33,418 nt of DNA from a virus: positions 1-33,418 of the IMG/VR virus record IMGVR_UViG_3300039412_000579; one strand, written 5' to 3'. Position 1 is the first letter of the stretch, and every line of letters begins with the position of its first letter. The translations under genes and the position numbers were made by a program. The notes below the pieces were generated by a model. That model had not been told where the DNA came from and made no database searches. It saw only the letters and a program-made list of their open reading frames with translations. Below are positions 1,891 through 31,994 of this stretch, piece after piece.

Positions 1891-4293
1891 TTAACTTATT
1901 TTAAATATACTAATCATTGTTCCTTGCTCTAACCATACCGGATTAGAACTTGTAGTAGTAGATGTCTTTACTTCAAATTCTACAATATCGCCAGCATTTA
2001 AATATATCATAGAAGTAAGCTCTAAAAAAACACTGTATTCAGTACCTGGTCCAGGATGCCATAATAATGGATAAAGATTAGCACGAATATAGGGACTATA
2101 AAAAAATAAAGGACTACCAGCTTTAACTACCGATGCAATAATATTTTTAAAATAATTACTTACATCATATTGAGAACTAAAAGGAAGCATAATATTAAAA
2201 AAATAAAAACCAGTAGATGAAGCAGTATAATTCGCTGGTGTACTTGTTGCTGGATCACCAGGGAAAAAACCAGTTGAATCACCATCAATCATATTATATG
2301 CAACTTTTGTTCCTAATAAATAATATGAAGAAGGTGCTGTAAGAGCCAATTCCCATCCTCCTGTATATGCTCTAAATGCACCAGTTCCAGTTCCACCAGT
2401 AGAAGAAATAGTACAAGAATTATTTCCATTAAAAATATTTATACCAGAACCAGCAGTTAAATTAGCCCAAGCAGGAGCTAAGCCTGTTGCGCCAATAAGA
2501 ACTTGGCCATCAGTTCCTTTGTTGCTCGTTACCAATCCTGTATTGGTAGTTTGCATTACTCCTTCAGTAAAACCATCAATAGCAAGAGAACCACCAACTG
2601 GAATAAGAACATTATCATCAAGCGATATAATAACATTCTGACCCGCATTAGGTATCGATTCAGTATGAATATTGTCGCCACCATTGATGTTAATCTGCTG
2701 CCCAACAGAGGTTGATGAGTTACCATCATTTGTGTTGAATGTTATTTCAGTCGATGTGCCACCACTGCCAATACGAAAACCAGAGATTCTCGTCCATTTA
2801 TCAATAGCATTACCAACAACATTCCCATTAGGAGCTGATGCTGCTGGATACGTAGAAGTAATCTGGAAAGTAACAATTTGACCAGCAGTTAAGGCAACAA
2901 TAGCAGCATGACTTGTCGTAATAATAGTTGTTGGTCCTGTACCATATGGCCTTGTTTCATTCTTATTTGTAGCAACACCGCCTACAATAATATTAAGTAT
3001 TATTGGATAGAGGAAAGATCCTGGTGCATTTGTTTCAACAGCAGCATCAATCTGGAAATAGTATTTTGCTGTCGTTGGTGCTGTATAGGTACAGGAAGCA
3101 CCTACACCATTACCAGGATAAAAAGCACTTAAATCATCAAAATCTTCTACCAACGCATCTTGAGTACCAAATACATAGGTATCAATTGGATTACCATAAA
3201 AACAAGCAGTTACGGTATTCGGTTGATAAGCACTAAAGGCACCACTTCCTGAAGTAATACCAACTGCTTTAAGATCTATTTCATAATCATGACTTGTATC
3301 AATAACAATAGATCCATCAGATGAAGTAAAAGTTCCCCAATCAGGTACACCAGACCCTGTCATCATCACTTCACCAGGAGTACCAGAATCAGTAGATGAT
3401 AAAAGGCCTGCACCAGAAGACATAACAACACCAGCGCCAATTGCAGATATTGTTAAAGTATTATCTACAACAACATCAGCTGTAAGATCTAAGGTTATTG
3501 TATTAGTAAGAACTCTATCAGTAACAATATTCTTAACGCCTGTTATTGGCCTTGTTAATCCTTGGATGTTAATATTATAGGCGGTCTCTGTTGCAATACC
3601 ACCTTCAGTCGTCATTTTCAGCGGAATAAAAGGTCCACCTGCATTGATAGTAAGAGTATCGCCAGCTGCATCAACAGAACAGCCTCCAGCACCGAAAACA
3701 TTGAGTACGCCATTGAGTGGTAAAGCGGGGCCAGTACTATTACCCATAAATTGACTTGCTACCCCAAGAGCATTAATAGTGACTGTATCACCAACACCAG
3801 ACGTCGTGATTCCTGAACCTGCAGCACCAATTATGTTTATATTACTACCAACTTGCGTTGCTGTTCCAGAATCAGTTTTAAAGTCATCGGTACCCATACC
3901 ACCAAGAGCAGTAACAGTTAATGTATGAGTAGCAGGATCACCGGTAACCGTCGTCGTAATACCACCATCGCCAACAATATTAATATTGCGAACAATGTCA
4001 CCAGATACAGGACCTAATCCGCCAGCATCTCCTGTCAACGTAAGAATGCCACCACCGCCAGCACCAAGTTGCATCCATTTAGCAAGTTGACCTTTAGATG
4101 TCGATGAACCTTGTAGTGAAACAAGAACATAAACGGTCTCAGTGCCCGCAGATTTATTGGTATAAAGCCATAGGTCTCCCAAGGAATAACCAGTGTCGTA
4201 GATCGTTGGTGCTCGTGTTTCGAATGCCCAGTTAGGAGGTTGAAAGGCTCTCGTACCCATATAGTCAATATTTTTGCCATATCTGTTACTCAT
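1891..4293 (-). CDS. Tail fibre with anchor-like N-terminus and two C1q-like domains
   Basis: An 800-aa structural fibre and the last gene of the leftward operon. The N-terminal segment (about 30-75, SLGDLWLYTNKSAGTETVYVLVS...KWMQLG) resembles the N-terminus of the 775-aa fibre at 11296-13623 (IGQLWINTRTNVAYILVS...), so this is probably the virion-attachment module. The middle is Gly/Thr/Ile-rich with repeated NINI or LTI strands (GDIVRNINIVG, GSNINIIGAAG, NINIQG), typical of trimeric beta-structured shafts. Two copies of a module opening with GAF-x-AY (about 349-506 and 637-800) have the layout of phage C1q/TNF-like jelly-roll heads, with a YTA(P/S)-T-x-YxF-type strand in each. The C-terminal one is probably the receptor-binding tip. 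The domain call rests on pattern only. Confidence 0.75.
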   Translation of the reverse strand: MSNRYGKNIDYMGTRAFQPPNWAFETRAPTIYDTGYSLGDLWLYTNKSAGTETVYVLVSLQGSSTSKGQLAKWMQLGAGGGGILTLTGDAGGLGPVSGDIVRNINIVGDGGITTTVTGDPATHTLTVTALGGMGTDDFKTDSGTATQVGSNINIIGAAGSGITTSGVGDTVTINALGVASQFMGNSTGPALPLNGVLNVFGAGGCSVDAAGDTLTINAGGPFIPLKMTTEGGIATETAYNINIQGLTRPITGVKNIVTDRVLTNTITLDLTADVVVDNTLTISAIGAGVVMSSGAGLLSSTDSGTPGEVMMTGSGVPDWGTFTSSDGSIVIDTSHDYEIDLKAVGITSGSGAFSAYQPNTVTACFYGNPIDTYVFGTQDALVEDFDDLSAFYPGNGVGASCTYTAPTTAKYYFQIDAAVETNAPGSFLYPIILNIIVGGVATNKNETRPYGTGPTTIITTSHAAIVALTAGQIVTFQITSTYPAASAPNGNVVGNAIDKWTRISGFRIGSGGTSTEITFNTNDGNSSTSVGQQININGGDNIHTESIPNAGQNVIISLDDNVLIPVGGSLAIDGFTEGVMQTTNTGLVTSNKGTDGQVLIGATGLAPAWANLTAGSGINIFNGNNSCTISSTGGTGTGAFRAYTGGWELALTAPSSYYLLGTKVAYNMIDGDSTGFFPGDPATSTPANYTASSTGFYFFNIMLPFSSQYDVSNYFKNIIASVVKAGSPLFFYSPYIRANLYPLLWHPGPGTEYSVFLELTSMIYLNAGDIVEFEVKTSTTTSSNPVWLEQGTMISIFKIS

Positions 4294-29810: not shown

Positions 29811-31994
29811 CTATCGTACAAATCTATCCCATGGATTTGATTCAACAAAAAGAGGATTGAGCATAGTTCTTCCTCCATAGAGTGCTTCTTTCTTTATCTG
29901 ATCGAACTTCTCTGCAGTTAATCCTTGCTTACAAAGTGGAATTGCCTGACAAAGATATTTGACGGAATCGCAGTTATGGACAATAGCACCATTTGCTAAT
30001 GAGAAATGACCAACACCTGGTACCGAAATATCCCAAACATCTTCATGATCCGGCAGAGTTTTTACGCTTTCTATAATGCATTGCTTTACAATTGGGATGA
30101 CAGTATTTCTGGGTATGCCCATTTTTTCTAATAAGGCAGCTGAACTCTTTATTGCAATACAAACAATTTCTCGGTTCTCTTCTCCATATTGTCCAATTAG
30201 CTGTCCGTTGAGCATGTCTCGAATGCCATATTTTTCCTGCCTCTGATCCATGCCACTCTGCTGCTCTATCTCTAGCTTTTTGGCTAAAAACTCTATTAAT
30301 TGGTTTGTGATATGTTTTGCGATGGTCTGCTCTTGGTAAGCATTCAATATTGTATAAGCAGTTGTTAATGGAACAATGATCTCGGTGGTGTATTTCACAA
30401 TCTTTTGGTATTTCTCCAAAAGCGAATCTCCATACGTCTCTATGCAAGAGAGATCCACCTTTTGAAAAGTATTTTTCATTTGGATAAATTCTGTACAGAT
30501 ACCCATTAAAATATTGAGTCCCTGCATCAAGCTCGATTGGATCTTGATATAATTCGTTAGGCTTTCTGATGACTTCCACCCGTTCTCCGTTAAGAATAAA
30601 TGATCCGGCGTGCATTTCACTGTTGTACCGTCTACAAATACAACTTCCACAATATTCGCATTTATTCTTGTTTTCTGTGCTTTCCGACATTTATACCATC
30701 CTTGTAATGTTAATACTTCATCATTATCTTCTATTAACATTATCTGACGCATTCCGTTACGCGTCAAGACTAAAGTATCTCCAGTAAAACAAAAATTACT
30801 GCTCCAATCGTGAACGGGCTTATCTGAGTAACACTGCTTATCATCATTCCACTCTCGGTGGTAAAATTCCATTGCCTCTACTAATCTCTTACATCTTCTT
30901 TCATCAATAACAAAGCGAGGGAAGTGAGTCATGACGTTTTCGATAGCATTCTCTATACGAACCTGCGGAAGTACTTCAAAGTCTAAACCTAGTTGTGCTG
31001 CTTTCTCGAATCGAGATATAGCACCATCACCAAACTCTCTAACGGCAAGATCATGAGGACCAAAGTGAGTTCCATAAAGGTAAGGCTTTTCTCGTATTGT
31101 CTTCACATAATGATCAAGTCCCATACCACTTGAAGCATAGCAATCTATAATGCGTATTGAATTACCTTCTGAGGAGATCTGAAAGAAGAGAATAACACAA
31201 AGATCACGAACACCAATATCCCATGCTGTGTAGGTAAGCATGGAAGGGTCCCAGGGAACATGGGATATTTGGTTGTTCTCACGTATTTGATCTACAAGAC
31301 GACCATATATAGATCCTTCGATACCACGTGAGAAACTGCATTCATACTCTTGAGCATAAAGCTCTGCAGACATCTGTGCCTTTTCAAGCTCAAGTATCTC
31401 TGCAGGAATATGTTTTATATCTGAGGTTTTTTTGATATAAACAAACCAATCTTTGAGATTAGAAGCTACATTAAAAAGCTGATAACAATGATTACGGCTA
31501 TAAGGAGTCGTTATCATCAATATCCAACCACCATTATTTGCTAAGATAGGTCGTGCAAAGTCATAAGCTTTTGGATTGCAACGACTCCATTCTGAAAAGA
31601 TAATTGCATAAGGATTACGACCAACAATAGAAGTATCATAAGAATCTGCACCAATGATCTGTATTTGAGAATCATTCTTGAAACAGATCTTCATCTCAGA
31701 GTGATTAATGTTCTTGATGACTTCTTTAGGGATATAATCAAGAAGTTTTTTACCATCTGTTGTAATACAATCCCAGATAACACGGCGCCCTTGCTGAAAG
31801 GTTGGCAGAGCATACAGGATAGAACAAGTCTTAGCCATTGCTTGATGTATACAGAGATTGAAAGCGCAGATATCTTTCCCTGAACGGCGCGGAAGAATTG
31901 CTAATACTTTTCGATAGCCTTGCTTAGCAATAGCATCCCATATTGGTATTTGATAATCACGTAGTTTGAAGTCATTGATATCAATCGCATCCAT
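29811..31994 (-). CDS. terL: Terminase large subunit, interrupted by an in-frame intein
   Basis: 727-aa precursor; after intein removal (273 aa) the mature packaging motor is 454 aa, a normal TerL size. The ATPase has Walker A LPRRSGKD (34-41), Walker B AIIFSE (130-135) and coupling motif ITTP (161-164). The RNase H-like nuclease has AWDIG (Asp259), IIDCYASSG (Asp284) and, after splicing, HDWSSNF-CDSVKYL with the third acidic residue (Asp676). The intein lies between F401 and C675, in the most conserved nuclease motif, so an unspliced protein cannot complete the active site. The start overlaps the previous gene by 14 nt. Confidence 0.93.
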   Translation of the reverse strand: MDAIDINDFKLRDYQIPIWDAIAKQGYRKVLAILPRRSGKDICAFNLCIHQAMAKTCSILYALPTFQQGRRVIWDCITTDGKKLLDYIPKEVIKNINHSEMKICFKNDSQIQIIGADSYDTSIVGRNPYAIIFSEWSRCNPKAYDFARPILANNGGWILMITTPYSRNHCYQLFNVASNLKDWFVYIKKTSDIKHIPAEILELEKAQMSAELYAQEYECSFSRGIEGSIYGRLVDQIRENNQISHVPWDPSMLTYTAWDIGVRDLCVILFFQISSEGNSIRIIDCYASSGMGLDHYVKTIREKPYLYGTHFGPHDLAVREFGDGAISRFEKAAQLGLDFEVLPQVRIENAIENVMTHFPRFVIDERRCKRLVEAMEFYHREWNDDKQCYSDKPVHDWSSNFCFTGDTLVLTRNGMRQIMLIEDNDEVLTLQGWYKCRKAQKTRINANIVEVVFVDGTTVKCTPDHLFLTENGWKSSESLTNYIKIQSSLMQGLNILMGICTEFIQMKNTFQKVDLSCIETYGDSLLEKYQKIVKYTTEIIVPLTTAYTILNAYQEQTIAKHITNQLIEFLAKKLEIEQQSGMDQRQEKYGIRDMLNGQLIGQYGEENREIVCIAIKSSAALLEKMGIPRNTVIPIVKQCIIESVKTLPDHEDVWDISVPGVGHFSLANGAIVHNCDSVKYLCQAIPLCKQGLTAEKFDQIKKEALYGGRTMLNPLFVESNPWDRFVR
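29973..30791 (-). mobile_element. TerL intein, splicing-competent, 273 aa
   Basis: In-frame intein at residues 402-674. Block A is CFTGDTLVLT with catalytic Cys402. Block B is GTTVKCTPDHLFLT with the T-x-x-H pair (T462, H465). Block F is VWDISVPGVGHFSLANG. Block G is AIVHN with penultimate His673 and terminal Asn674. The +1 residue is Cys675. All residues needed for class 1 splicing are present. Between blocks B and F the intein frame carries about 170 residues with no homing-endonuclease motif. In a different frame the same DNA encodes a complete HNH endonuclease (30043-30690). Confidence 0.92.
30043..30690 (-). CDS. HNH homing endonuclease nested out-of-frame in the TerL intein
   Basis: 215 aa, entirely inside the intein DNA but in another frame on the same strand. 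It has its own start: AAGGA at 30699-30703, 8 nt before ATG at 30690. Residues 63-128 form an HNH_3-type nuclease: NGYLYRIYPNEKYF, LLHRDVWRFAFGEIPKD, CEIHHRDHCSINNCLYNIEC (His101/102, Asn110 and nearby), and ADHRKTYH. The N-terminus has CEYCGSCIC. The C-terminus (176-201) is a zinc knuckle, NCLYCNKEFSC...KYCHPNCK, with a basic tail. It starts 101 nt inside the intein and ends 70 nt before the end of the intein. It would cut intein-less terL alleles and spread the intein. Confidence 0.88.
   Translation of the reverse strand: MSESTENKNKCEYCGSCICRRYNSEMHAGSFILNGERVEVIRKPNELYQDPIELDAGTQYFNGYLYRIYPNEKYFSKGGSLLHRDVWRFAFGEIPKDCEIHHRDHCSINNCLYNIECLPRADHRKTYHKPINRVFSQKARDRAAEWHGSEAGKIWHSRHAQRTANWTIWRREPRNCLYCNKEFSCLIRKNGHTQKYCHPNCKAMHYRKRKNSAGS

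What the first reader, a model, noticed from the sequence alone, without database searches (positions are those of the whole stretch)
30435..30600. Intein linker may be evolutionarily 'nonsense' held open by the nested gene
Intein residues about 479-650 lack known motifs, and the DNA there carries the HNH active site in the other frame. If an HNH gene invaded a mini-intein out of frame, the linker would be a frame-shifted reading of the nuclease that merely has to avoid stops and not block folding. An alternative is a programmed frameshift producing an intein-HNH fusion.
Basis: inference. Interest (0 to 1): 0.7.

Follow-up and report, generated by a model that had tools for sequence, protein, structure and literature searches.

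The report
Nuclease gene hidden inside intein linker
In this virus the DNA-packaging motor gene carries a self-splicing intein, and the intein's middle section is meaningless as intein protein because the same DNA is really a separate DNA-cutting enzyme gene read in another frame, an arrangement that about 80 related virus sequences share and that probably lets the pair spread together.

Summary
The core idea is right; the coordinates are slightly off. The terminase large-subunit gene (29811-31994, minus) holds a 273-aa intein (29973-30791). A 215-aa HNH nuclease ORF (30043-30690) lies wholly inside it in another frame (intein frame = HNH+1). All 78 related IMG/VR loci, plus phages TJE1, Highwayman, MD07 and a gut-phage record, show the same nesting in the same relative frame. 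In the linker (HNH aa 61-196) substitutions follow HNH codons, and intein-frame identity between distant relatives barely exceeds what HNH constraint alone gives (0.21-0.32 vs 0.20-0.29). AlphaFold leaves intein residues 91-203 unfolded. A mini-intein at the same site lacks the segment. So the linker is 'nonsense' held open by the nested gene. The first ~60 HNH codons differ: they overlap the intein's catalytic block B, both frames are constrained, and this extension (CxxC, predicted beta hairpin) is absent from the free-standing relatives found, so it was probably overprinted. A conserved ATG and Shine-Dalgarno support separate translation; a programmed frameshift is not supported. Two phages with 88%-identical flanks differ by exactly 816 nt (272 codons) here, indicating mobility as a unit. 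Splicing, cleavage and homing remain untested.

The parts
29811..31994 (-). terminase large subunit (TerL) ORF, 727 aa, interrupted in frame by the intein
   Evidence: phrog_2 terminase large subunit 4e-26
29973..30791 (-). intein, 273 aa (TerL aa 402-674): Cys1 at 30789-30791, block B TPDH 30600-30611, C-terminal HN 29973-29978, +1 Cys 29970-29972; inserted at the conserved HDW(S/A)S(N/H)x|ADxxRY motif of the TerL C-terminal domain
   Evidence: Hint fold by AlphaFold/Foldseek
30522..30791 (-). intein N-terminal splicing half (residues 1-90)
   Evidence: pLDDT 87-98; intein codon position 3 is the most variable or all positions are constrained
30081..30521 (-). intein 'linker' (residues 91-237): nonsense in the intein frame, coding in the HNH frame
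   Evidence: pLDDT mostly below 60; substitution tests
29973..30080 (-). intein C-terminal splicing half (residues 238-273)
   Evidence: pLDDT 71-98; intein position 3 variable
30043..30690 (-). nested HNH nuclease ORF, 215 aa, wholly inside the intein; HNH codon position 1 = intein codon position 3
30699..30703 (-). Shine-Dalgarno AAGGA, 8 nt before the HNH ATG
   Evidence: sequence; duplex energy -9.0 with anti-SD
30511..30690 (-). doubly coding stretch: HNH N-terminal extension (aa 1-60, CxxC at aa 11-14 and predicted beta hairpin) over intein block B
30319..30450 (-). HNH_3 catalytic core (HNH aa 81-124)
   Evidence: alignment A3
30088..30165 (-). C-terminal CxxC...CHPNC zinc-ribbon-like motif of the nuclease (aa 176-201)
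   Evidence: invariant cysteines in A3

Best explanation
A mobile intein in the terminase gene whose endonuclease is not an in-frame domain but a separate gene nested out of frame. An HNH nuclease gene of a family that otherwise sits free-standing beside terL probably entered the loop of a mini-intein in the permissive +1 frame. The ribosome reads TerL-intein straight through; the intein half-domains (residues 1-90 and 238-273) fold into a Hint domain and splice, and the intervening ~147 residues are an unselected, disordered loop whose only duty is to contain no stop and not to hinder folding. The nuclease is made from its own start codon and Shine-Dalgarno inside the intein, would cut intein-less terL alleles, and the whole 819-nt element would be copied in. 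Later (or at entry) the nuclease recruited about 50 upstream codons that overlap the catalytic block B, so that stretch now carries two selected proteins. Shown: both ORFs, frame relation, selection in each frame, start site conservation, precise presence/absence polymorphism. Inferred: splicing, DNA cleavage, homing, order of events.
For: Architecture in 78/78 relatives with 0 stops in the intein frame. Codon-position diversity flips from intein position 3 (N-extein 0.66) to all-low in the overlap (position 3 0.26-0.38 at intein 45-94) to intein position 2 (0.59-0.68) in the linker and back to position 3 (0.59-0.69) in the C half. Linker identity in the intein frame 0.21-0.32 vs null 0.20-0.29, against 0.55-0.68 vs 0.19-0.34 over HNH aa 1-60. 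Substitution classes in 8 independent pairs. AlphaFold intein: termini above 95, residues 91-203 below 50. Own start: in-frame ATG 8-20 codons before the CxxC in 57/60, SD median -7.7 vs -2.9 kcal/mol for control ATGs; the ATG would survive in 19% of intein-synonymous nulls. Mini-intein without HNH at the same site. Free-standing relatives beside terL: PAE1, FBPa53, SN1, Poludnitsa, EauM-23, PhiSTP1, and BP10 upstream of terS. Mobility: L119 vs L167 flanks 88% identical, net insertion 816 nt = 272 codons; 5 of 105 related TerLs carry the intein, all 5 with the HNH.
Against: No biochemical evidence. SD strength is largely a by-product of the conserved intein motif GEV (null -7.0 vs -8.3). Intein-frame linker identity is slightly above the null over HNH aa 61-108 (0.31-0.32 vs 0.27-0.29), so weak constraint near the junction is possible. 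Sequences are related, so z-scores overstate significance. The 8-pair substitution test rests on 370 linker changes. The tree does not settle how many times nesting arose.
Confidence: 0.85

Rival explanations
1. Programmed -1 frameshifting within the intein makes a TerL-intein-HNH fusion, and the nuclease is not initiated separately.
For: The geometry would need a -1 shift, and the ORFs overlap extensively.
Against: No X-XXY-YYZ heptamer in the window and only 7 of 60 relatives have one with an open downstream HNH frame, at varying positions; in the window the HNH frame is closed by a stop immediately before the ATG; conserved ATG with SD.
Confidence: 0.04
2. The nested HNH is a terminase accessory nuclease for packaging (HK97 gp74-like) rather than a homing endonuclease.
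For: The free-standing relatives are all next to terminase genes; terminase-associated HNH nucleases for cos cleavage exist (discussed in PMC10448857).
Against: Sporadic occurrence (5 of 105 related TerLs) and a precise presence/absence polymorphism between 88%-identical phages; location inside an intein; zinc-finger HNH_3 architecture with I-HmuI as top, though weak, structural match (E 0.4). The two roles are not exclusive.
Confidence: 0.12
3. The linker is a selected intein-frame domain (for instance a DNA-binding or folding module) that happens to overlap HNH.
For: Small excess of intein-frame identity over the null near the N-terminal junction.
Against: HNH-nonsynonymous changes are equally rare whether or not they alter the intein (0.54 vs 0.51); variation is concentrated at intein codon position 2; predicted disorder.
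Confidence: 0.04
4. The HNH is a decaying relic that is no longer expressed; the intein persists by inertia.
For: Expression has not been shown.
Against: Strong purifying selection in the HNH frame (synonymous 2.35-2.88x vs nonsynonymous about 0.5x), invariant catalytic and zinc residues, complete ORFs in the relatives.
Confidence: 0.05

Closest known systems
[quoted passage not shown]
   Same: An HNH gene with zinc-finger motifs inserted out of frame in a phage gene; the host frame stays open and reads as a poorly structured insert; sporadic distribution suggests homing; Pacc40 relatives are free-standing beside the same gene.
   Different: No intein: no splicing domain, the insert stays in the host protein, the host gene is a methylase, no RBS was detected and leaderless initiation was proposed. 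Here the host is an intein in an essential gene, the insert would be spliced out, and an SD and ATG are conserved.
Canonical intein with in-frame homing endonuclease (e.g. the LAGLIDADG-like portal inteins of Mycobacterium phages Cane17/Gizmo, L094, L097)
   Same: Splicing domain plus nuclease at the usual insertion point; mobility as a unit.
   Different: There the nuclease is part of the intein polypeptide; here it is a separate protein in another frame.
Fractured-gene / split-intein arrangement (Dassa et al. 2009, cited in PMC3229294; Lactobacillus phage CL2 here)
   Same: A related HNH gene (CL2 HNH matches the window HNH at 1e-8) lies between N- and C-intein halves in the same terminase context.
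   Different: In CL2 the intein ORF is broken by a stop and would splice in trans; here the intein stays one polypeptide because the frame through HNH is kept open.
Free-standing homing nucleases and collaborative homing (Zeng, Bonocora & Shub 2009, cited in PMC3229294; PMC10448857)
   Same: A nuclease gene adjacent to its presumed target gene, a plausible ancestor stage.
   Different: Described for introns; here the partner is an intein and the nuclease is already inside it.
Out-of-frame HNH in the DNA polymerase intein of EBPR siphovirus 2 (L095, found here)
   Same: Nested nuclease (phrog_374, 2.5e-31) with the same +1 relation, unannotated.
   Different: Unrelated nuclease family and host gene, so an independent case.

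Membership tests
Intein (Hint splicing domain) | Hint-fold splicing domain recognised by profile and structure | tested here: met
   PF14890 8.2e-9; Foldseek to Ssp DnaB and gp41-1 inteins at 5e-7
Intein (Hint splicing domain) | Catalytic residues Cys1, block B TxxH, terminal His-Asn, +1 Cys/Ser/Thr | tested here: met
   C1, T61-P-D-H64, H272-N273, +1 Cys in the window; invariant or nearly so in A4
Intein (Hint splicing domain) | Protein splicing | not testable with these tools
   needs expression
Intein with in-frame homing endonuclease | Endonuclease domain in the intein reading frame | tested here: not met
   linker has no domain and is predicted unfolded; the nuclease is in another frame
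HNH homing endonuclease (HNH_3 type) | HNH_3 catalytic motif and zinc-binding cysteines | tested here: met
   PF13392 3.1e-8; invariant H102, N110, C176, C179, C197, C201
HNH homing endonuclease (HNH_3 type) | Presence/absence polymorphism at a fixed target site | tested here: met
   L119 vs L167, net 816 nt at the same site; 5 of 105 related TerLs occupied
HNH homing endonuclease (HNH_3 type) | Cleaves the intein-less allele and promotes its own copying | not testable with these tools
   needs cleavage and co-infection assays
ShiLan-type out-of-frame HNH insertion | HNH ORF out of frame in an uninterrupted host ORF | tested here: met
ShiLan-type out-of-frame HNH insertion | No splicing element present | tested here: not met
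   a full intein surrounds the HNH gene
Fractured-gene split intein with nuclease between halves | Intein halves on separate ORFs | tested here: not met
   one uninterrupted 727-aa ORF

The most novel reading that the evidence does not exclude
Overprinting has given birth to a working nuclease domain on top of an intein's catalytic block: the ~50-residue N-terminal extension of the nested HNH protein (CxxC plus beta hairpin) arose de novo in the alternative frame of intein block B, is needed by the nuclease, and therefore locks intein and nuclease together so that neither can be lost or swapped alone.
Probability: 0.5. Interest if true: 0.78.

Novelty: new variant of a known kind. Interest (0 to 1): 0.62.

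Why it matters
It shows how a mini-intein can acquire a nuclease without needing an in-frame domain fusion: any nuclease gene that can be kept stop-free in the host frame can be carried as a loop that is spliced away. It offers a testable series (free-standing beside terL, mini-intein, split intein with nuclease, nested nuclease) for the open question of how inteins gain endonucleases. The overlap with block B gives a natural case of two proteins selected from one stretch, with an estimable boundary between double coding and nonsense. It also warns that intein 'linkers' may hide genes: nested nucleases in TJE1, Highwayman, MD07 and EBPR siphovirus 2 are unannotated in the records seen here.

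Tried and rejected
Programmed frameshift: no conserved slippery site. Genome-collection scan with the HNH alignment found no confirmed relative among bacteria and archaea, although its short peptide patterns may miss divergent ones. PDB relatives of the HNH by sequence: only one hit, judged chance; the structural match to I-HmuI is weak (E 0.4), so homing function rests on genomics. Literature: no held paper found that describes an HNH gene out of frame inside an intein; Gosselin et al. 2025 (bioRxiv 2025.01.02.630785), Dassa 2009 and Gorbalenya 1998 could not be read, and the first is cited in PMC11855218 for overlapping reading frames in actinobacteriophages, so prior description is possible. 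Tree of HNH relatives separates the N-extended nested group from a clade of free-standing and other nested ones but has open forks and one mis-framed row (BP10), so the count of independent nesting events was not claimed. The SD signal was considered as independent proof of initiation and discounted, because intein-synonymous nulls give nearly the same strength; the conserved ATG is the better evidence.

Full report
What is there. The window is an IMG/VR virus record of 33,418 bases. On the minus strand, 29811-31994 encodes the terminase large subunit (phrog_2, 4e-26), interrupted by a 273-residue intein (TerL aa 402-674, window 29973-30791) with Cys1, block B TPDH, terminal His-Asn and a +1 Cys. 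A second ORF, 30043-30690, encodes a 215-aa HNH_3 nuclease (3e-8) and lies wholly inside the intein; its codon position 1 is intein codon position 3.

The flagged coordinates. 30435-30600 covers HNH residues 31-86 and intein residues about 65-119. The HNH catalytic stretch is downstream of that (about 30319-30399). More than half of the flagged interval (30511-30600) belongs to the conserved splicing half. The region that behaves as nonsense is about 30081-30521.

Is it chance? One alignment-based scan of IMG/VR returned 78 loci, a set that includes two loci identical to the window. In all 78 the frame HNH+1 is free of stops through the nuclease and runs on as a TerL ORF, whereas the other same-strand frame holds 6-34 stops. 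Phages TJE1, Highwayman and MD07 and gut-phage record MT838676 show the same relation, as does an unrelated nuclease in a DNA polymerase intein of EBPR siphovirus 2. The +1 frame appears to be the permissive one, since few stops arise there (a mean of 2.5 under synonymous permutation), which can explain the constancy; that explanation is an inference.

Which frame is selected where. Per-position diversity over 61 non-redundant loci, in intein codon positions 1/2/3, is 0.48/0.40/0.66 in the N-extein; 0.14-0.21/0.18-0.29/0.26-0.33 at intein 45-74; 0.20-0.46/0.59-0.68/0.24-0.53 in the linker; and 0.20-0.31/0.15-0.22/0.61-0.69 in the conserved C half. The high value at intein position 2 (HNH position 3) means that the linker DNA is selected as HNH. 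With HNH proteins fixed and synonymous codons permuted under a no-stop rule, the null gives intein-frame linker identity of 0.20-0.29; observed is 0.21-0.32, with a small excess mainly near the two junctions. Over HNH aa 1-60 observed is 0.55-0.68 against 0.19-0.34. The reverse null (intein fixed) predicts HNH identity of 0.14-0.27; observed is 0.35-0.68, and Cys11 and Cys14 are invariant (60/60 and 61/61) where the null gives 0.39 and 0.17. These tests use related sequences, so z-scores are inflated. An independent test on 8 separate close pairs counts 370 linker substitutions: HNH-synonymous/intein-nonsynonymous 2.35x neutral, HNH-nonsynonymous/intein-synonymous 0.54x, both nonsynonymous 0.51x. 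In the N-terminal overlap (81 substitutions), changes that are nonsynonymous in both frames are at 0.45x and those altering HNH only at 1.12x, so both frames matter there.

Structure. AlphaFold with 39 inteins gives confidence 87-98 for residues 1-90, above 95 for the C-terminal end, and below 50 for 91-203; Foldseek matches mini-inteins. The HNH model with 56 sequences has mean pLDDT 81, with strands 26-33 and 36-42 in the doubly coded part.

The doubly coded extension. HNH aa 1-49 are conserved in the nested family. None of the 18 matching phage records aligns to HNH aa 1-39; the free-standing PAE1 protein begins 'MDPIII..', at the equivalent of aa 50. Since block B is shared by inteins generally, the HNH frame is the likely newcomer: overprinting. 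Absence from the searched collections is not proof of de novo origin.

Expression. 57 of 60 relatives have an in-frame ATG 8-20 codons before the CxxC, usually at -15, with a Shine-Dalgarno (median -7.7 vs -2.9 kcal/mol for other out-of-frame ATGs). Much of the SD strength follows from the intein motif GEV (null -7.0), but the ATG would survive in only 19% of intein-synonymous nulls. No slippery heptamer occurs in the window; 7 of 60 relatives have one with an open frame, at differing positions. Separate initiation is the better explanation.

Origin and mobility. Free-standing relatives lie next to terminase genes in PAE1, FBPa53, SN1, Poludnitsa, EauM-23, PhiSTP1, and upstream of terS in BP10. 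A 133-aa mini-intein without nested ORF (13 and 11 stops in the other frames) sits at the same terminase site in ctRVW222. Lactobacillus phage CL2 has N-intein, HNH gene and C-intein in separate frames or ORFs. Among 105 related TerLs, five have the intein and all five have the HNH. L119 and L167 are 88% identical on both sides and differ by 816 nt, exactly 272 codons. This supports invasion of a mini-intein by a terL-associated nuclease and spread as a unit; the order of events is inferred.

Known context. Out-of-frame HNH insertions are known from phage methylases without an intein (PMC11855218), nucleases between split intein halves from Dassa et al. 2009 (cited in PMC3229294; not read, content from memory), and collaborative homing from introns (PMC10448857). 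The intein-nested, single-polypeptide version with a doubly coded N-terminus was not found in the held literature, but a preprint on actinobacteriophage inteins could not be read. I file it as a new variant of a known kind.

Noticed in passing
L079 (Tetrasphaera phage TJE1), L080 (Acinetobacter phage Highwayman), L081 (Rhodobacteraceae phage LS06-2018-MD07), HNH at about 2500-2980: Unannotated HNH genes nested out of frame in terminase inteins, without the N-terminal CxxC extension.
   Followed up: partly
L095 (EBPR siphovirus 2) about 2503-3260: Intein in DNA polymerase gp51 hides an out-of-frame HNH-like nuclease of another family (phrog_374, 2.5e-31), unannotated.
   Followed up: partly
L092 (Lactobacillus phage CL2) 506-2590 and beyond: Terminase split by an HNH gene between N- and C-intein halves, probably a trans-splicing split intein annotated as a complete terminase plus HNH.
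   Followed up: partly
L093 (Brochothrix phage BL3) 727-2607: Terminase ORF ends shortly after an intein N-half; gp3 may carry the C-half: a possible split intein without a nuclease.
   Followed up: no
L059, L071, L075: The intein-bearing terminase ORF is open for 930-1180 codons, longer than in the other relatives; possible fusion with an upstream gene or a long open frame.
   Followed up: no
window 30555-30707 (TerL aa 430-480): PHROG family 15127 'head protein' matches the intein N-half, suggesting that an intein is embedded in that profile.
   Followed up: no
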